The position numbers were made by a program, and so were the translations under genes. A stretch of 64,000 bases of DNA, from assembly GCF_004122035.1 (NCBI RefSeq), contig NZ_SAXA01000006.1:1-64000 (forward strand), read 5' to 3'. Positions within the stretch are counted from its first letter, which is position 1. The number at the start of each line of letters is the position of its first letter. Under the pieces are notes generated by a model that worked only from the letters and a program-made list of their open reading frames with translations, ran no database searches and was not told where the DNA came from. This DNA comes from Ancylomarina salipaludis. GTDB taxonomy: Bacteria > Bacteroidota > Bacteroidia > Bacteroidales > Marinifilaceae. Positions 49,472 through 64,000 of this stretch are shown piece after piece.

Positions 49472-51361
49472 TTATCTTTCAGGTAATCCTTCAATATAAG
49501 TAAACTCTGGAGATGGTCCTGATTTAGTACATTGGAATTTAAGAGTATATTCTCCATCTACATATCCGCTATCGCCTTCTTCAAAAGTGATTACAGTTAT
49601 ATTATAAAAAACATCAATTCCGTTAACTTGAGTTGTTGCATCAGGAAATTTCTTCTCTAACATGATTGCAACTCCTTCTACCATTCTTTCATCCATCAAT
49701 GCAATGGTTTCTTCATCAGATAACCCATCATATCCAGCAATTTTATAATCCGGATTTCTTCTATTCTTAATTCTCAAGTCAAAATTATCGTAATTTGAAC
49801 TAGAGCCATAATAATACTCAGATGTGCTATATTTCGAAGTTGCGCCATGCTCAGCGATTGAGTAAACAACAATCAAATGATAATCTTCCTTTGACATTTT
49901 AAAACTCACTGTAGGATCAAATACCCATCCTAATTCACCAGCTGCATAAACGTACTGTTCAGTCTTTTCAGGCATTGTTGACCAAACCCCTTCCTTATAG
50001 GTATATTCAGATGCAATAGTCTTAGTTCCTCCTGAATAATACTTATAAACCATTACCATCATATCGCCTTCTTGAGCATATGGGTATTTATTCATTAAGA
50101 ATATTGGTAAATAATCTTCAGGAGCTACACTGCTAGAAAAGTTTCCATACTCACCAGGTTTTCCCATCGAATCATAATCACTTCTTTGTAGATTATAAAC
50201 ACCTTCTGGTGTGCCCCAATTACTTCCATCAAAAGTATAAAATACTTTTGATGTTTCACCTTCTGGGCGACCATAACCTTTAACGCTTAACTGAGAAATT
50301 TGCCATGTTGACGCATCATCCGGAGCTTTTGATTTATAAACAAAAGCAATATGTATTTTTTTACCGTTGTATGCAGATAAAGAAATATCCCCAGATTCAA
50401 CATAGGTGTAACTATTACCGGCTGGTTTGTTTTCATCAGCTAAAACAATTTCATCCCAATCAGCTACATCTAAAGCATCCCCAGCAGTATATCCTTCTCT
50501 TACATAAATAAAAGTCTGTTGCCAATCACCTGACAAAAAGTTTTGTGCTTGCGAAAAATTAAGAATTGCATCAGGGGTTTCAGTTAAATCAATTTCGGCT
50601 GTAATTAACCAATCTTCATTATCATGTCGAGCCCCACTACTGTATCCACTCATCTTAGCATATCCAGCTCCATTATATGAAGATTGATACCATTCTTGAT
50701 CTCCAACAATTGAACGGGTTTCAAATTGATTTAGGTTATCAGAAAAATCAGCTTCAAATACGGTTACCACATCTACTTCAGATGGGTCGTAATTTGTGTC
50801 TCTTGAATCATAACTTACTAGCACAACATCACCATCTACTGCCTCTGTGTACTCAGCTTTCAAGATATCATTCAAATAATCCTTAGCAGGAAACTTTGGA
50901 GTGAAAAAACCAGCTTCTCCAGTAGTAACATCTACTGAAGCATATTCATCATTTCCTAATTTGAAATATGGTGCATCTGTATAAGACATCAAATATTCAG
51001 CGTCTCTTGTATCATAACTAAATGTTATATTAGCTGAAGATGTTTTATCAAAATTCTTATACGTATCATTTAAAAAAGCAGGAATGTAATTTGCTGCTGG
51101 TCTGTCATCACTAAAACTTAACAATGAAGCAATAGCCTTAGCCTTTGTAGAATCTGCTTCATTTTTAGCGCTCTTCAAAGCCAATTTGCTAATCGCTGAA
51201 TAATCTTCTACAGATAAGGTACGCTCTAATGCTTGAGCGTTCTCGGTTCCCGTTTTAGCGGCGTCCAATTCATCGTAGAACTCATCATTTACATCACATG
51301 ATGAAAAAACACCAAGTCCGAAGAAAATGAAGGCTCCTAATAGTATTTTTGAGTATTTCAT
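49472..51361 (-). CDS. Surface lipoprotein with choice-of-anchor J-like domain, partner of the TonB receptor
   Basis: 629 residues. A lipoprotein signal ends at SSC (about residue 22). A segment near residues 230-365 (VTVFEADFSDNLNQFE, DNEDWLITAEIDL) resembles choice-of-anchor J domains. A repeated short module with a DYLP-F-x-Y-x-A-GD pattern appears about three times (around residues 95, 158 and 410). It lacks the TPR-like helices of SusD. It lies 57 nt after the TonB-dependent receptor gene and ends at a terminator, so the two form an operon. Ligand unknown. Confidence 0.8.
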   Translation of the reverse strand: MKYSKILLGAFIFFGLGVFSSCDVNDEFYDELDAAKTGTENAQALERTLSVEDYSAISKLALKSAKNEADSTKAKAIASLLSFSDDRPAANYIPAFLNDTYKNFDKTSSANITFSYDTRDAEYLMSYTDAPYFKLGNDEYASVDVTTGEAGFFTPKFPAKDYLNDILKAEYTEAVDGDVVLVSYDSRDTNYDPSEVDVVTVFEADFSDNLNQFETRSIVGDQEWYQSSYNGAGYAKMSGYSSGARHDNEDWLITAEIDLTETPDAILNFSQAQNFLSGDWQQTFIYVREGYTAGDALDVADWDEIVLADENKPAGNSYTYVESGDISLSAYNGKKIHIAFVYKSKAPDDASTWQISQLSVKGYGRPEGETSKVFYTFDGSNWGTPEGVYNLQRSDYDSMGKPGEYGNFSSSVAPEDYLPIFLMNKYPYAQEGDMMVMVYKYYSGGTKTIASEYTYKEGVWSTMPEKTEQYVYAAGELGWVFDPTVSFKMSKEDYHLIVVYSIAEHGATSKYSTSEYYYGSSSNYDNFDLRIKNRRNPDYKIAGYDGLSDEETIALMDERMVEGVAIMLEKKFPDATTQVNGIDVFYNITVITFEEGDSGYVDGEYTLKFQCTKSGPSPEFTYIEGLPER

Positions 51362-51418
51362 ATTTTCAATTTTATATTTTACTTATTTCGCTTTCAATAA
51401 TTCTGAAATCCGAAATTC

Positions 51419-54004
51419 CTAAAATTTGAATTTTAAACTAGCTGTCCAAGTTCTTCCGAAGCCATAAAATACAGTTGCATCCTGCCATTTGTTAGTAGTA
51501 GCATAAGAGTCTGCAATATATTCTGCATCGAATAAGTTCATAACCTTAGCTGAAGCAATAGCTGTAAATGGACCTACTGCAAATGTATATTTTACATTAG
51601 CGTCAACCACTCCATAATCAGGCACTTCCCAAGTATTTGTCCCAGCTAAGTCAGTCACATTTGTTGGGTTAGAAAATAGACGAGCAAAGTAGTTATAATC
51701 AACTCCGATTTTAAGATCCTTTGTCAACTTATAGTTTGCTCCAATAGCGGCTGTTGTTTGAGCAGCATCACCAACACTTACATTAGCGATATTTGCACTC
51801 ACCTTATTTTGCTTATCTGAACCTGCCTCAACGACATTACCATTTTCATCAACAGGTTTACCATCACGGTCAAAAATCAAAGCTTCTGTATCATCTTGCC
51901 ACTTCCAATCACCAATCGATAACATTGCATAAATTGATAATCCGTCTGCTGGTTTTGCCTTAATATCAATTTCAATACCTTTGTGTAAAGCATTAACACC
52001 TGTCATGTTATAACTACCTGCATCTGGATCTGTTCTGTCAACCAAACCAGTTACAGCCTTATCATTCCACATAGTATAATAAGCATTTACATTTGCTGAA
52101 ATGATTGAAGATTTATATCCATAACCCAATTCAACAGAATAAATTTTCTCATTTACAGCATCTTCATTGGCTACATTACTAAAATCTTTTGCTGTGAAAA
52201 CATTACTGAAATATGGTGCTCTTGAAATTGCTCCGATATTAGCAAACACATTATGATACTCATTAATATTATAATTAGCCCCTCCTTTTAAAGTCCCACC
52301 AATATAATTGTACGCTTTAGAAGTTTTATCATCATAGTAGAAACGATCTCTACGCTTGTAATTAGTATTGGAAATAGCACCTGAAACAAACGAACTTAAA
52401 TTTCCAGTTGTATACTCTATTTGAGCAAATCCTCCTGTAGAAAGAACAATTCCATCATAATCTCTACCGATTACATCACCTTCTTTAAGCTTTTCGTCGT
52501 TAGCTAAAACATCTGAATCTTCTCTATTGGGATCAATAAAAAATGCCCCTCCTAATAAATCCCCAACAGTTCTAGTATGTTCTCCAATGTAGTAGCGCAT
52601 GTCAATACCACCAGAAAAATTTAATTCATCAGTTAAATCTTTATTAATAGTAGACAACAAGCCATACCATTGGTGATTGTTATTCGATACTCCAATTATT
52701 GCTTGAGATCCATTTGGATCTATTGAATTCTCTTGTTGAATTCGTGCGTAATCTTTATATCCCTCTATAGTTCGATATTCGGTATCAGATCCATATAAAC
52801 GACTTCTTTCATTTCCTTGTGCACTCCATCCGCCACCTGTAGAAATTGAAGCATACACAGCTGTTGACACTGAAGTTTTTTCATCAATTGTCCAAAAATG
52901 ATTTAAAGATATTTGAGGTTTGTGATAGAAGTTATGAGACACATTCATATATTCACCATTAACATCAAATCCATAAGTCGCATTAAACTTATAGCCATCC
53001 TTAAAATCTCTCCATTCTTCAATTTTACGAGCATCATAACGGGATCTCTGATCATGCCACTGAGGCGCTCCAAATGCTGTAAAAGATAATTGGTGCTTTT
53101 CATTGATCTGCTTAGACACATTCAAGAAATAAGAATAACCTTCAAAAGGAGTGCCCATAATATAACCATCTCCTTCGGTTTTAGAACCTGAGAAAGTAAT
53201 TGCATATCCATTATCCATTAAACCAGTAGATAAGGTAACTGCCGTTTTTTTGTAACCATCATTACCGATTCCTGAGAAAACAGAACCACCTTTTTTCATA
53301 TCGGTAGTCTTTGTCAAAATATTGATTGATCCTCCAACTGAAGGAGCTGCAATTTTAGCTGCACCTAAACCACGTTGTGTTTGCATAGAACGAGTCACAT
53401 CGGATAGTCCTGCCCAATTTGACCAATAAACACCTCCCCATTCCATATCATTAACAGGAATACCATTAATCATTACGGCTATGTTTTCTGAAGCAAAACC
53501 ACGCATATTAATACGAGAGTCACCAAATCCACCACCTTGTTTAGTTGCATATACACCAGGAGTCGATTTTAAAACCTCTGGAAACTCTTGAGTTCCTAAT
53601 TTTTCCTGAATTATTTCAGGACTAATTGTAGAAACAGCTACAGGAGTTTTGCGCTGAATAGCCACAGAAGCCATTACACTAACTTCGTTCAAACCAACGG
53701 CATCTGATTCAAGTTTAATTGTACCAAAATCTTGTGTCCCATTCAATGTCAGTTCCTTATCAAGGAAACCCACAAAACTTACTAAAATTGTTTTGGTTCC
53801 ATTAGGCACCTCCAAAACAAAGGCTCCATCAAAACCAGTAACAGTTCCTGTTGCTGTACCAGGAATAACAACAGAAGCACCAGGCAAAGTTTCATTGGTA
53901 CTTCCGTCAACAACCACCCCTTTCACAGTGGTTTGAGCAATAGCTGCAACAGACAGCATCATAAGTGCTGCCATTGACAAAATACTTCTCATCGCTTTTT
54001 TCAT
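51419..54004 (-). CDS. TonB-dependent outer-membrane receptor
   Basis: 861 residues. The signal peptide (about 1-23, ending AIAQ) is followed by a carboxypeptidase-regulatory-like domain (about 25-105, GVVVDGSTNETLPGASV), a plug domain (about 120-230, with KSTPGVYATKQGGGFGDSRI and the GIPVNDMEWGG loop) and a barrel ending in aromatic-rich strands with a terminal Phe. No SusD gene is adjacent; instead a different surface lipoprotein follows. Substrate cannot be deduced. Confidence 0.92.
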   Translation of the reverse strand: MKKAMRSILSMAALMMLSVAAIAQTTVKGVVVDGSTNETLPGASVVIPGTATGTVTGFDGAFVLEVPNGTKTILVSFVGFLDKELTLNGTQDFGTIKLESDAVGLNEVSVMASVAIQRKTPVAVSTISPEIIQEKLGTQEFPEVLKSTPGVYATKQGGGFGDSRINMRGFASENIAVMINGIPVNDMEWGGVYWSNWAGLSDVTRSMQTQRGLGAAKIAAPSVGGSINILTKTTDMKKGGSVFSGIGNDGYKKTAVTLSTGLMDNGYAITFSGSKTEGDGYIMGTPFEGYSYFLNVSKQINEKHQLSFTAFGAPQWHDQRSRYDARKIEEWRDFKDGYKFNATYGFDVNGEYMNVSHNFYHKPQISLNHFWTIDEKTSVSTAVYASISTGGGWSAQGNERSRLYGSDTEYRTIEGYKDYARIQQENSIDPNGSQAIIGVSNNNHQWYGLLSTINKDLTDELNFSGGIDMRYYIGEHTRTVGDLLGGAFFIDPNREDSDVLANDEKLKEGDVIGRDYDGIVLSTGGFAQIEYTTGNLSSFVSGAISNTNYKRRDRFYYDDKTSKAYNYIGGTLKGGANYNINEYHNVFANIGAISRAPYFSNVFTAKDFSNVANEDAVNEKIYSVELGYGYKSSIISANVNAYYTMWNDKAVTGLVDRTDPDAGSYNMTGVNALHKGIEIDIKAKPADGLSIYAMLSIGDWKWQDDTEALIFDRDGKPVDENGNVVEAGSDKQNKVSANIANVSVGDAAQTTAAIGANYKLTKDLKIGVDYNYFARLFSNPTNVTDLAGTNTWEVPDYGVVDANVKYTFAVGPFTAIASAKVMNLFDAEYIADSYATTNKWQDATVFYGFGRTWTASLKFKF

Positions 54005-60241: not shown

Positions 60242-60278
60242 CAAAAAAACAGCCCTGATACCTTAACGATATCAGGGC
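60242..60278 (-). terminator. Terminator of the nuclease lipoprotein operon
   Basis: GGCCCTGATATCG / ...GGTATCAGGGC stem on the minus strand followed by TGTTTTTTT. Confidence 0.8.
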
Positions 60279-60284
60279 CATATT

Positions 60285-61118
60285 TTACCAGATATAATCT
60301 ACAAATTCGGGATGATCGATAAAAGGATTTCGATTCCCCTGAATCTCAAAAATTGTTTGATTTCGTTTCTTTTCAAAATCATCAACTGGATCTTGCTTAT
60401 TCCATTCAATTAGAGTCGAAAGTTTACCAATGTATGGACCACTACTTGAAACATTGTCATTCAACTCCAAATCTGGATTACCATTCTCACCTTCATAACG
60501 CACAGCCATATAAAACATCATACGGGCGATATCACCTTTTACGGCATCACGAGGCTCCCATGTTTTGCTTGTATACTTACAACCGGTCGCTTCACTATGT
60601 ATCGTTCCCCCATTATCAAAATATTTTGTCAATCGATCTGAATTGACCGTACGGTCTACGGGACGAATATGATGAATATCAGTAGAGGCGGGTTTGGATG
60701 TATCGGGATACCCCCCAAAACCACGCGACTTGGCCCAAACATGTTCTCTTTCCCATGAATCCGGAGCCATGCTTCCATGATTTTTTTCTGATTTTGACTG
60801 TGATCTTCCAGTATAAATCAAAATTACATTATTGGGATTTTTAGGATCTTCATCGGTCTTGTCTAATGCGTCCCAAACATCAAAACCAGACGAGGTATAA
60901 GGTAAAACCTTATTCCCATCGATTAAATCATGAAGTTCAGCTTTTAAATCTCTAGAATCAATCCCATTAATAGTCTTATAATATGAATTAAAAGCTGATG
61001 GATATTTAAGCTCTATTGTCCCTAATTTACTAGGTTTTGGTTCTCCCGGTGCATCATCAACTTTAGTACATGAAAAAGCAAATATTGTAATTAGGAAAAA
61101 TAATAGTTTTCTGCGCAT
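60285..61118 (-). CDS. Endonuclease I family lipoprotein
   Basis: About 277 residues from the ATG at 61118 (MRRKLLFFLITIFAFSC); the lipobox is FAFSC. An in-frame ATG at 61145 would hide the signal. The beta-beta-alpha metal-finger nuclease motifs of the EndA/NucM/Vvn group are WEREHVWAKS and TDIHHIRPVDRTVNSDR. Such enzymes cut DNA or RNA without strong sequence preference. Second gene of an operon with another family member 63 nt upstream; ends at a terminator. Confidence 0.9.
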   Translation of the reverse strand: MRRKLLFFLITIFAFSCTKVDDAPGEPKPSKLGTIELKYPSAFNSYYKTINGIDSRDLKAELHDLIDGNKVLPYTSSGFDVWDALDKTDEDPKNPNNVILIYTGRSQSKSEKNHGSMAPDSWEREHVWAKSRGFGGYPDTSKPASTDIHHIRPVDRTVNSDRLTKYFDNGGTIHSEATGCKYTSKTWEPRDAVKGDIARMMFYMAVRYEGENGNPDLELNDNVSSSGPYIGKLSTLIEWNKQDPVDDFEKKRNQTIFEIQGNRNPFIDHPEFVDYIW

Positions 61119-61181
61119 AATCTTTGTCTGATTAATATTTATCATCGATCCCTCATTATTTATCGATCATTATTGATTGAA

Positions 61182-62078
61182 TTATTCCTTCCAGATAGCT
61201 GTTTTCTTATCTCCAAAAATGTATTTTACCAATTCAGGATGATCAATAAATGGGTTACGATTATTCTGGAAATCATATATCACATTATTGCGTCTGATTT
61301 CATATGGGTCAACAGGATCCAATTCGTTCCACTCTAACAAATCAGAAAGTTTGGCATTTTTATCAATTGATAAACCATAACGAATAGCCATATAAAAACA
61401 CATTCTTGCCACATCACCCTTCGCACTCAAAGGAGGTTCATAATAACCACCTCCGCTGGTTCTGGGACCGTTAACATCAGCAAAAAGTAAGTTTCCTCTT
61501 TTCCCATTCTCTCCTGCATCAGAAGCTCTCACATGGTGACCATCTGTTCCAGGACCATTACTTGTATTAAAATCACCATTCGATTGAGCCCAAACGTGTT
61601 CACGATTCCATCCATAAGAAACAGAGCTTACTCTATCTTCTTTGGCAATACCGCTTTCTTTATAAATTCGCCACACCTGTGATGCATCAGCAGGATTTTG
61701 ATCCCCATCCTCACACATAGTCCAAACCATAGAGTATGACAAACTTTTAGCATCACTTGAAATAATAGTCTTAATATGATTTCTCAATTCTGTTCCTGAT
61801 AAGGACGAAGCTGATGTGTAATAATTTTCAGGAATACGAACCGACATCATATGCTGTCCCTCTTCTACTTTTTCGACATACTCTTTGGGCGTATATTTCA
61901 CGATAATTTTACCGGAAGCATCCACTTCAGGAGTCAAATAGTTTTCCTGATCGGGATTGGGTGTTATTTCTCCACCATTATCCGGCAATTCAGTTTCATC
62001 AGTTACATTATCGCTTGACGAATCACATGAATACAAAGCAATTGACAAGAAAAATAATAGATAAAGTGCTTTTCTCAT
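61182..62078 (-). CDS. Endonuclease I family lipoprotein
   Basis: About 298 residues from the ATG at 62078 (MRKALYLLFFLSIALYSC); lipobox LYSC. Nuclease motifs are WNREHVWAQSN and TDGHHVRASDAGENGKRGN. A Asp/Pro-rich linker of about 40 residues separates anchor and enzyme. Paralogue of the gene downstream; both share the closing FQNNRNPFIDHPELVKYI-type segment. Preceded by a good promoter (62245-62274). Confidence 0.9.
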   Translation of the reverse strand: MRKALYLLFFLSIALYSCDSSSDNVTDETELPDNGGEITPNPDQENYLTPEVDASGKIIVKYTPKEYVEKVEEGQHMMSVRIPENYYTSASSLSGTELRNHIKTIISSDAKSLSYSMVWTMCEDGDQNPADASQVWRIYKESGIAKEDRVSSVSYGWNREHVWAQSNGDFNTSNGPGTDGHHVRASDAGENGKRGNLLFADVNGPRTSGGGYYEPPLSAKGDVARMCFYMAIRYGLSIDKNAKLSDLLEWNELDPVDPYEIRRNNVIYDFQNNRNPFIDHPELVKYIFGDKKTAIWKE

Positions 62079-62244
62079 TTTATTTGATGTTTTAGTTATA
62101 TTCCTATTGGGCACTAACAATTATCAAAATGACTCGTATCGAAATATTAAATCCGACATATAAAACAATACATAATGATAATTTATTGCGGGATGGGATT
62201 TTTGCCATACAGGATGGTATGACATGGGGCATAAAATGGTAGGG

Positions 62245-62274
62245 CAAAAATAGTGAATATCAACTGATTTTCAA
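62245..62274 (-). promoter_or_regulatory. Promoter of the endonuclease I operon
   Basis: On the minus strand TTG (62274-62272), 19 nt, TATTTTTG (62252-62245). A perfect 9-bp inverted repeat, ATTTTTGCC (62198-62206) and GGCAAAAAT (62243-62251), overlaps the -7 box and may be an operator. Confidence 0.7.
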
Positions 62275-62311
62275 TAAATCTCCCAACTATTTGATTGTTA
62301 AAAAAAACAGT

Positions 62312-62345
62312 ATAAAAAAGAAAAGCATCCCATAAGGGATGCTTT
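62312..62345 (-). terminator. Terminator of the DUF5689-like lipoprotein gene
   Basis: Perfect 10-bp stem AAAGCATCCC / GGGATGCTTT, then TTCTTTTTTA on the minus strand. Confidence 0.85.
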
Positions 62346-62366
62346 AGCTTATTCAATTCAAAAGAT

Positions 62367-63740
62367 TTATTTAATTGTAATATCATCAATTAATAAATCG
62401 TAAGCTACAGTTTTACCAACTTTTAAAGCAAACAAACTGCTTCCAGCCTCAGTAGCAAGAGCAAGATCTGCAATGTTTAATGTCACTTTTAACCATTCAC
62501 CAGCTGTATCAATTGCTCCTGTATATGAATTTGAACCAGCAGGTTCAACGGTTGCTGCTGTTGAATAATCACCTAAGTTAAATGGCTTAAATCCATCAGT
62601 TGTATAAACATTTAAAGACAATGATTTGCCCGAAGTTCCTTTAATGTAAAAAATAATCTTAGTTTTTCCTGTAGCATCAAAGTTTTCAGGTACTGTAGCA
62701 GTAAATACATAATCATTACCAGTTGGAGTTGTGTTGATATACAAAGCCTTAGAACCATCACGACCATTATCACTTTGAACAGCATAATCTTTTAAACCAT
62801 ATTGATTCAAAGCTCCTGTGAATGTTTCCCAAGTTTCAAAATCAGATCCAGGGAAAAGACCCAAACCGTTATCACCGTCATCTACACCAGTATCACCGCC
62901 ATTATTGTCGCTTTCAACTGTAAAACGTTCTCCTGTTAATTCTAGGCCATCAATACCAGTTAAAGCAATTTGAAAATCAGCACCAAATGTATTTAAGATA
63001 CCAGAAATAGATCCACTCCCTTCAGGAACAACTTCTTCGTTAAAATTGGCATAATTACTATTGCTAATTGCAATAGTTTTCTTATCAATAGTAGTAAAAC
63101 CAATAGTTGTATAACCAGAATTATCTTTATCTCCTAACTTTTTACCTTTATCAGTTTCAACAACTTGAACGTTATTTACTTTTACCAAAGTACCCACCAT
63201 ATCGGGAGTTAATGTCGAAAGATCATCAATCTCTTTAGGCGTAATGTTTTTATTTAATTCACCGCCGAAAGCAACAGCTTTTAAATTAACTTCAGGAATA
63301 CGAGACACTTTATATTTATCATCAGTAGCTTGATATCCTAAAGTATAAGTATCGTAATATTTTGCCATAAATAAACCAGCTGCCTTTACAAAAACTTCTT
63401 GACCAGCCACAAAAGTTTGATAAAATTTATCACCTTCTTTTAAACAACTAATTTTTACAGCAACATCACCATCCTGTAAATAAATTGCTTGATAGAAATT
63501 ATTTGATTCCGCTTGGTTAGAAACAACAATTCCTTTAAAAATAAAATCAGCAGGTACTTCAACCGCATCACCTGTTGTAAGGGCACGAAGATCAGCAATT
63601 GTTTTATTTGCTACTGGCAATTCCGGAGTCGGATCAACTGGACTTGGATCGATTGGTGAATCATTATCACTACTACATGATGTAAATGAAACAGCAAGTC
63701 CCATAACCATGACAAACAATAAATAATGTAATTTTTTCAT
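62367..63740 (-). CDS. DUF5689-like OB-fold surface lipoprotein
   Basis: 457 residues; lipoprotein signal with SFTSC (about residue 22). Two OB-like segments follow: IADLRALTTGDAVEVPADFIF...YQAIYLQDG (about 50-130) and a second at about 170-270 (VGTLVKVNNVQVVE, SGSISGILNTFGADFQIALT). This is the DUF5689 layout. The C-terminal 160 residues look like a jelly-roll, carbohydrate-binding-like domain ending in YDLLIDDITI. It follows the truncated gene at 63816 by 75 nt, in the same direction. Nucleic-acid or glycan binding at the surface is plausible but unproven. Confidence 0.8.
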   Translation of the reverse strand: MKKLHYLLFVMVMGLAVSFTSCSSDNDSPIDPSPVDPTPELPVANKTIADLRALTTGDAVEVPADFIFKGIVVSNQAESNNFYQAIYLQDGDVAVKISCLKEGDKFYQTFVAGQEVFVKAAGLFMAKYYDTYTLGYQATDDKYKVSRIPEVNLKAVAFGGELNKNITPKEIDDLSTLTPDMVGTLVKVNNVQVVETDKGKKLGDKDNSGYTTIGFTTIDKKTIAISNSNYANFNEEVVPEGSGSISGILNTFGADFQIALTGIDGLELTGERFTVESDNNGGDTGVDDGDNGLGLFPGSDFETWETFTGALNQYGLKDYAVQSDNGRDGSKALYINTTPTGNDYVFTATVPENFDATGKTKIIFYIKGTSGKSLSLNVYTTDGFKPFNLGDYSTAATVEPAGSNSYTGAIDTAGEWLKVTLNIADLALATEAGSSLFALKVGKTVAYDLLIDDITIK

Positions 63741-63815
63741 TTTACAGTTCTTAGTTAATTAATAATTGGATTTAAATAAAATTAATAGCTAGCTATTGTA
63801 TAATATCATTAACGG

Positions 63816-64000
63816 CTAGTCAAGCATTTCAAGATCATCAAGACTGTTGATGACAAACTGAGCATAACCCTCGTGAACACTCAAAACTCCAGTAATATTA
63901 AACTTCCCAGATGGTGTTAAAAGATGTGCAAACTTGGAATAATTACTATTGAATAATGGTAATTTTTTACCGTTATTATCAATGATTTCAATAGTCGTTT
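63816..64000 (-). CDS. Partial DUF5689-like protein (C-terminal 61 residues; continues beyond the window)
   Basis: The frame open to the window edge ends at the TAG at 63818-63816. The 61 readable residues (TTIEIIDNNGKKLPLFNSN ... FNITGVLSVHEGYAQFVI ... LDDLEMLD) align with residues of the second OB-like segment of the 62367-63740 protein (TTIGFTTIDKKTIAISNSN ... GSISGILNTFGADFQIAL ... IDGLEL). It is therefore the C-terminus of a related protein, upstream in the same operon. The rest lies outside the window. Confidence 0.75.
   Translation of the reverse strand, partial: TTIEIIDNNGKKLPLFNSNYSKFAHLLTPSGKFNITGVLSVHEGYAQFVINSLDDLEMLD

What the first reader, a model, noticed from the sequence alone, without database searches (positions are those of the whole stretch)
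60285..64000. Surface locus combining OB-fold lipoproteins with two endonuclease I lipoproteins
Four consecutive minus-strand genes: a truncated and a complete DUF5689-like (two OB-like segments) protein, then two lipoprotein nucleases with intact HxxxR/HHxRP motifs, in two transcription units divided by a terminator and a promoter. OB folds commonly bind nucleic acid, so a bind-and-cut apparatus for extracellular DNA is a reasonable hypothesis, for nutrient or phosphorus use or for biofilm turnover. A 5'-nucleotidase lipoprotein and an EEP lipoprotein elsewhere in the window could finish the breakdown.
Basis: partly seen in the sequence, partly recalled or inferred. Interest (0 to 1): 0.6.

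Follow-up and report, generated by a model that had tools for sequence, protein, structure and literature searches.

The report
DNA-uptake gene cluster with surface nucleases
The window ends inside a gene cluster whose core matches two genes that a duck bacterium cannot do without when it takes up foreign DNA; here the cluster also carries extra DNA-cutting surface proteins, which points to a largely unstudied, pilus-free DNA-import machine that is widespread in the Bacteroidota.

Summary
Just past the window edge lie the rest of a complete (not truncated) DUF5689 lipoprotein, a TonB-dependent-transporter barrel, and a divergent EEP-family nuclease-like gene. The barrel and DUF5689 genes are orthologous (barrel reciprocal best hits, same order) to Riemerella anatipestifer RA0C_RS04915 and RS04920, both experimentally essential for natural transformation (PMC8459023). 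In 100 non-redundant loci the barrel is followed directly by DUF5689 in 95 of 98, and preceded by the divergent EEP gene in 68 of 95. In R. anatipestifer the EEP gene is RS04910, which that study did not examine as a transformation gene. The window genome has ComEC, DprA, a DUF1343 protein and a multi-HhH protein, but no pilus secretin. The predicted DUF5689 structure contains tandem OB folds whose best solved matches include DNA-binding tandem OBs. The Endonuclease I lipoproteins are a clade-specific add-on: two here, three in four congeners, one in Marinifilum, in their own transcription unit. Best reading: a pilus-free outer-membrane DNA capture-and-import module with added surface DNases. 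Nutrient use alone is not excluded. DNA binding, transport and cutting are inferred.

The parts
60285..61145 (-). Endonuclease I surface lipoprotein 2 (286 aa); conserved EHVWAKS, DIHHIRP, VNSDR, NRNPFID
   Evidence: PF04231 E 2.1e-40; PDB relatives Vibrio nuclease 1oup etc.; 72-81% identical copies in four congeners
61182..62078 (-). Endonuclease I surface lipoprotein 1 (298 aa from the ATG); EHVWAQS, DGHHVRA, ENGKR, NRNPFID
   Evidence: PF04231 E 6.4e-32; PDB relatives; 69-82% identical copies in four congeners, 63-67% in Marinifilum directly after DUF5689
60249..60281 (-). terminator-like hairpin after the EndoI unit
62322..62345 (-). terminator-like hairpin separating the DUF5689 unit from the EndoI unit; also found in two congeners
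62367..63740 (-). DUF5689 lipoprotein B (457 aa): tandem OB-type domain (about 44-272) plus CBM-like jelly roll (about 287-457)
   Evidence: PF18942 E 2.9e-44; AlphaFold2 mean pLDDT 85.8; Foldseek and VIA; 25% full-length identity to R. anatipestifer RS04920
63816..64000 (-). 3' part of DUF5689 lipoprotein A (316 aa), which continues to contig position 64766 past the window end; lacks the C-terminal domain seen in congeners. Upstream of it, outside the window on the same contig numbering: TonB-dependent-transporter-like barrel 64770-67643 (-), orthologue of RA0C_RS04915, and divergent secreted EEP enzyme 68290-69336 (+), orthologue of RA0C_RS04910
   Evidence: PF18942 E 1.3e-53, CarboxypepD_reg, Exo_endo_phos_3 E 1.7e-118; fold of the Marinifilum barrel orthologue

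Best explanation
The locus is an outer-membrane module for capturing and importing extracellular DNA without a type IV pilus, orthologous to the R. anatipestifer natural-transformation pair RS04915-RS04920. Proposed working: surface lipoproteins with tandem OB folds (DUF5689) catch DNA at the cell surface; the TonB-dependent barrel they sit beside passes it into the periplasm on TonB energy; a secreted EEP-family nuclease encoded divergently processes it there; ComEC, DprA and a multi-HhH protein encoded elsewhere in the genome take a strand into the cytoplasm. In this genus an array of two or three Endonuclease I lipoproteins in a separately terminated unit adds surface cutting that makes ends or short pieces. 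SHOWN here: orthology, conserved gene order, predicted folds, motifs, and presence of the other transformation genes without a pilus secretin. SHOWN elsewhere: the R. anatipestifer pair is essential for transformation (PMC8459023). INFERRED: DNA binding by OB domains, transport through the barrel, roles of EEP and EndoI, and that this organism is transformable.
For: Reciprocal best hits of the barrel with RS04915, 31-32% over the whole length, E 1e-123 and 1e-124, the next hit far weaker. RS04915 was identified in genome G198 by gene order RecA=04870 ... ComEC=04895 ... EEP=04910, barrel=04915, DUF5689=04920, which fits the tags in PMC8459023. Both RS04915 and RS04920 deletions abolish transformation. 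tonB mutants lower it (PMC8383284). In 100 loci DUF5689 follows the barrel in 95/98 and a divergent EEP precedes it in 68/95, while no other neighbour recurs widely. The genome has ComEC (41), DUF1343, DprA (51) and a 429-aa multi-HhH protein (52, 56) but no secretin. DUF5689 model pLDDT 85.8 with Teb1/RPA/HIN-200 tandem-OB matches. The barrel model is a TonB-dependent transporter, VIA Z about 30. EndoI array kept in four congeners and Marinifilum; EndoI directly after DUF5689 more often than random placement gives, p 5e-4.
Against: No DNA-binding, uptake or nuclease assay exists for these proteins. The OB domains are acidic (family median net -14). EndoI-type nucleases (Vibrio Dns) are known to lower natural transformation (own knowledge), so their presence argues for nutrition. 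Flavobacterium johnsoniae was not transformable under the tested conditions (PMC7965970), although the genus Flavobacterium has these homologues (PMC8459023 Table 4). ComEC and DprA are common also in bacteria not known to be competent. The tonB effect in R. anatipestifer may be partly through iron. The barrel's sequence match to the Pfam Plug model is below cut-off.
Confidence: 0.66

Rival explanations
1. Nucleic-acid feeding locus: the same parts work like a polysaccharide-utilisation locus for DNA, with surface binders, surface endonucleases, import of oligonucleotides through the barrel and periplasmic breakdown, to gain phosphorus, nitrogen and carbon; transformation is a by-product in some species.
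For: Surface EndoI array added in this genus; extracellular nucleases are prevalent in sediment Bacteroidota that degrade DNA (PMC8289736); DUF5689 lipoproteins with CBM-like domains resemble surface-binding proteins.
Against: The core pair is essential for transformation in R. anatipestifer; no recurrent neighbour other than EEP, barrel and DUF5689 was found, so no linked transporter or nucleotidase is part of the core; the EndoI array is a lineage add-on.
Confidence: 0.22
2. EndoI genes are independent neighbours (biofilm or competitor-DNA clearance, or protection from incoming DNA) that merely sit next to the uptake module in a separate transcription unit.
For: Own terminator-bounded unit in the window and a terminator-like hairpin in the same gap in two congeners; EndoI absent from the great majority of loci with the core.
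Against: Position after DUF5689 kept in all four congeners and in both Marinifilum genomes, and seen in three further loci; an EndoI near another such locus shares the DUF5017 domain with RS04920-type proteins.
Confidence: 0.3
3. The barrel and lipoproteins import some other ligand, and the transformation phenotype in R. anatipestifer is indirect.
For: TonB-dependent transporters classically carry metal chelates, vitamins and glycans (own knowledge); CBM-like C-terminal domain in DUF5689 B; acidic OB domains.
Against: Two separate markerless deletions each abolish transformation; EEP and EndoI partners and tandem-OB folds all point to nucleic acid.
Confidence: 0.12

Closest known systems
Riemerella anatipestifer RA0C_RS04915-RS04920 natural-transformation genes (PMC8459023)
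   Same: Orthologous barrel (reciprocal best hit, 31% over full length) followed by a DUF5689 lipoprotein; divergent EEP gene on the other side (RS04910); ComEC and DUF1343/DprA/HhH-type genes also present in the window genome
   Different: Two DUF5689 genes instead of one; Endonuclease I lipoprotein unit added; different family (with Marinifilum) and no demonstrated competence. The 2021 paper reported RS04915 homologues only in Flavobacteriaceae and did not treat RS04910 as a transformation gene.
ExeM/NucH and YhcR-type extracellular nucleases
   Same: EEP nuclease and OB-type domains act together on extracellular nucleic acid (own knowledge); weak NCBIfam ExeM/NucH match of the EEP gene
   Different: OB and EEP parts are separate genes here, with a transporter between them
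Endonuclease I / Dns family (Vibrio Vvn, E. coli EndA; PDB 1oup)
   Same: PF04231 family and catalytic motifs
   Different: Lipoproteins with surface-export-like acidic signals, in tandem behind a receptor locus; Vvn and EndA are periplasmic or secreted single genes (own knowledge)
Bacteroidota PUL / SusCD-type uptake loci
   Same: Surface binding lipoprotein + surface hydrolase lipoprotein + TonB-dependent barrel with CarboxypepD_reg domain
   Different: No SusD; nuclease instead of glycanase

Membership tests
R. anatipestifer-type transformation module (RS04915-RS04920) | orthologous barrel protein | tested here: met
   reciprocal best hits, 31-32% over the full length
R. anatipestifer-type transformation module (RS04915-RS04920) | DUF5689 lipoprotein directly downstream in the same orientation | tested here: met
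   a few bases apart here; 95 of 98 loci; full-length similarity to RS04920 E 7e-18
R. anatipestifer-type transformation module (RS04915-RS04920) | other essential genes in the genome (ComEC, DprA, DUF1343, HhH protein); no pilus secretin | tested here: met
   (ComF not tested; orthology of the HhH protein to RS02645 not tested)
R. anatipestifer-type transformation module (RS04915-RS04920) | required for natural transformation | not testable with these tools
   no experiment on this organism
TonB-dependent transporter | plug plus outer-membrane barrel of the TonB-dependent type | tested here: met
   AlphaFold2 of the Marinifilum orthologue, pLDDT 85; Foldseek E down to 4e-29, VIA Z about 30 over residues 112-891; strands not counted one by one
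TonB-dependent transporter | Pfam Plug / barrel models over cut-off | tested here: inconclusive
   Plug 15.3 bits against cut-off 23.9; CarboxypepD_reg over cut-off
TonB-dependent transporter | TonB box and TonB-dependent transport | not testable with these tools
   low-confidence N-terminal linker; tonB mutants reduce transformation in R. anatipestifer (PMC8383284)
DUF5689 (PF18942) | profile match over cut-off | tested here: met
   E 2.9e-44 and 1.3e-53
OB-fold nucleic-acid binders | tandem OB fold | tested here: met
   Foldseek Teb1 AB E 7.7e-5, prob 1.00; RPA, IFI16, AIM2, MNDA HIN among the matches. Predicted model, low TM-scores on the whole chain; the OB half was not searched alone
OB-fold nucleic-acid binders | binds nucleic acid | not testable with these tools
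   domain net charge negative is a caution
Endonuclease I (PF04231) | profile over cut-off and catalytic motifs | tested here: met
   139 and 112 bits against cut-off 25; EHV and the VN.DR-type Asn kept
Endonuclease I (PF04231) | nuclease activity | not testable with these tools
   no assay
SusCD / PUL | SusD homologue next to the barrel | tested here: not met
   neighbour lipoproteins match only DUF5689 over cut-off
ExeM/NucH/YhcR-type nuclease | OB and nuclease domains fused in one protein | tested here: not met
   separate genes

The most novel reading that the evidence does not exclude
Most Bacteroidota lineages with this locus import DNA through a dedicated, plugged, TonB-powered outer-membrane transporter instead of a pilus, with tandem-OB surface lipoproteins as DNA receptors and a dedicated EEP nuclease (RS04910 family) as the missing DNA-entry nuclease; some lineages upgrade it with surface-anchored Endonuclease I. 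Passage of DNA through a TonB-dependent transporter would be a new mode of DNA entry.
Probability: 0.4. Interest if true: 0.88.

Novelty: new variant of a known kind. Interest (0 to 1): 0.66.

Why it matters
How Bacteroidota without type IV pili take up DNA is an open question: in R. anatipestifer two essential outer-surface proteins are known but their mechanism, and the nuclease that makes single strands, are not. This work ties that pair to a conserved three-gene module across the class, names the divergent EEP gene as an untested candidate nuclease in the very organism where the assay exists, shows that the module is not confined to Flavobacteriaceae, and offers a natural variant with surface DNases that can separate 'transformation' from 'DNA as food'. 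It bears on gene transfer, including resistance genes, in gut, soil and marine Bacteroidota.

Tried and rejected
L071 ('Chryseobacterium gleum' MAG) was first taken as a proxy for R. anatipestifer, but its barrel lacks the N-terminal domain and resembles Flavobacteriales MAGs, so the name may be wrong; replaced by G198, identified by gene order. PDB sequence searches with DUF5689 (single and profile) found nothing credible; EEP found no PDB relative by sequence; PHROGs none; Rfam none in the locus or in the EEP-barrel intergenic region. Literature: DUF5689 and RS04915 each occur in a single held paper; M949_1556 papers deal with LPS, virulence and vaccines, judged from titles and abstract starts only. 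Promoter prediction at chance level. The VIA second look gives no rows for the OB half because the CBM-like half fills the list, so nothing is concluded from their absence. A clustering link between EndoI and DUF5689 proteins was checked and is not a fusion of the two: only accessory regions are shared, one matched as DUF5017.
Full report
OBSERVATION. The reported genes exist at the reported places on the minus strand. 60285-61145 and 61182-62120 are Endonuclease I (PF04231) and 62367-63740 is DUF5689 (PF18942), all well over Pfam cut-offs. Each has a signal peptide with a lipobox and acidic residues after the Cys (SC-TKVDD, SC-DSSSD, SC-SSDND, SC-DEED), the pattern of surface-exported lipoproteins in Bacteroidota (own knowledge). 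The 'truncated' gene is complete outside the window. HHxRP is intact in one nuclease only; the other reads HHVRA. The terminator between the two units is real, and a terminator-like hairpin sits in the same gap in two congeners, with a somewhat different sequence in one. The promoter claim is at chance level.

THE LOCUS BEYOND THE WINDOW. Reading on past base 64000 of the same contig gives, on the minus strand: a TonB-dependent-transporter-like protein of 957 aa with an N-terminal CarboxypepD_reg domain (64770-67643); DUF5689 A (63816-64766) a few bases behind it; DUF5689 B (62367-63740); the terminator; then the two EndoI genes and a second terminator. Divergent to the barrel is a secreted EEP enzyme (Exo_endo_phos_3, E 1.7e-118) at 68290-69336. 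The genome holds only these two DUF5689 genes and three EndoI genes; the third EndoI is a 975-aa T9SS-type protein on contig C5.

LINK TO NATURAL TRANSFORMATION. One held paper mentions DUF5689: in Riemerella anatipestifer, RA0C_RS04920 (DUF5689 + DUF5017) and RS04915 (CarboxypepD_reg outer-membrane protein) are each essential for natural transformation, shown by markerless deletions below the detection limit. This fits the published tags RecA RS04870, ComEC RS04895, RS04915 and RS04920 in steps of five, so the EEP gene is RS04910; this is an identification by order, not by name. The window's barrel and the R. anatipestifer barrel are reciprocal best hits (31% over the full length). DUF5689 A and B are each about 25% identical to RS04920 and EEP is 35% identical to RS04910. 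R. anatipestifer tonB mutants also lose transformation efficiency, though one acts at least partly through iron (PMC8383284).

HOW CONSERVED. A scan of 84,980 species genomes with a barrel profile returned at least 589 matching stretches, of which the best 80 were kept. They come from records named Bacteroidales, Marinifilum, Saprospiraceae, Chitinophagaceae, Flavobacteriales and Rikenellaceae, against the 2021 statement that RS04915 homologues occur only in Flavobacteriaceae. In the family of genome G095 (probably Weeksellaceae), 112 of 120 genomes have the barrel. In the window's own family it is patchy: all four congeners but only 3 of 30 others.

THE NUCLEASE ADD-ON. EndoI lies near the core in only eight of the 101 loci. 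In the four congeners the order is EEP <-> barrel-DUF-DUF-EndoI-EndoI-EndoI, in the window species one EndoI fewer, and in both Marinifilum-type genomes barrel-DUF-EndoI. EndoI directly after DUF5689 is more frequent than random placement among the neighbours would give (5 of 73 slots, p about 5e-4; the loci are partly related, so this is not a strict probability). Identity to the window species within the genus: barrel 76-87%, EEP 83-85%, EndoI 69-82%, DUF5689 A 47-67%, DUF5689 B 35-77%: the putative surface binders diverge fastest.

STRUCTURE. AlphaFold2 of DUF5689 B with 41 relatives gives mean pLDDT 85.8. The N-terminal half hits tandem-OB DNA-binding proteins (Teb1 AB E 7.7e-5 with probability 1.00; RPA; IFI16, AIM2, MNDA and p204 HIN domains); TM-scores over the whole chain are low and the OB half was not searched alone. 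The C-terminal half is a CBM-like jelly roll (VIA Z 11.5). A related DUF5689 protein reaches the Pfam OB-fold model tRNA_anti-codon weakly (E 0.005, below cut-off). The Marinifilum barrel is modelled as a plugged TonB-dependent transporter (pLDDT 85; VIA Z about 30 to PirA and BtuB). The OB domains are acidic, which tempers the claim of DNA binding; EEP is basic (pI 9.0).

THE REST OF THE MACHINE. The window genome has ComEC, DprA, DUF1343/NamZ and a 429-aa protein with several HhH repeats and an N-terminal hydrophobic segment (resembling, but not shown orthologous to, RS02645), and no secretin. ComF was not tested.

MECHANISM AND JUDGEMENT. The best-supported reading is a pilus-free DNA capture-and-import module; the EEP enzyme is a candidate for the unidentified nuclease noted in PMC8459023, and EndoI a surface accessory. 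Whether the purpose is transformation, feeding or both is open: EndoI of the Dns type is known to reduce transformation in Vibrio (own knowledge), which favours feeding for the add-on, while the orthologous core is tied to transformation by experiment. All steps of DNA binding, passage and cutting are inferred. Parts are known kinds; the combination, the third core gene and the distribution are new to the held literature, hence 'new variant of a known kind'.

Noticed in passing
window 49472-54004 (-): A paralogous TonB-dependent transporter (861 aa, about 31% identical to the locus barrel over its N-terminal part) with a 629-aa lipoprotein downstream that matches no Pfam family: a second receptor-lipoprotein pair about 10 kb from the first; Marinifilum L059 also has a second barrel-DUF5689 pair just upstream.
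   Followed up: partly
window 63816-64000 (gene continues to contig 64766, -): DUF5689 A is 316 aa here but 479-535 aa in four congeners: a probable loss of its C-terminal domain.
   Followed up: partly
L170:17493-20000 (R. anatipestifer genome G198): Genes that look like CRISPR cas2, cas1 and cas9 (judged by eye, no family search) directly downstream of the transformation pair: DNA uptake and DNA immunity side by side.
   Followed up: no
L183-L186 (congeners), EndoI array: Three tandem EndoI genes in four congeners and two in the window species; the middle copy is missing here.
   Followed up: partly
L060:5726-7552:- ; L121:7275-8549:+: DUF5017 domain is shared between an EndoI protein and DUF5689 proteins near the same kind of locus.
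   Followed up: partly
   Followed up: partly
L004 8644-9289 (between EEP and barrel): Long 646-bp divergent intergenic region with no Rfam match; median gap in other loci is 133 bp.
   Followed up: partly
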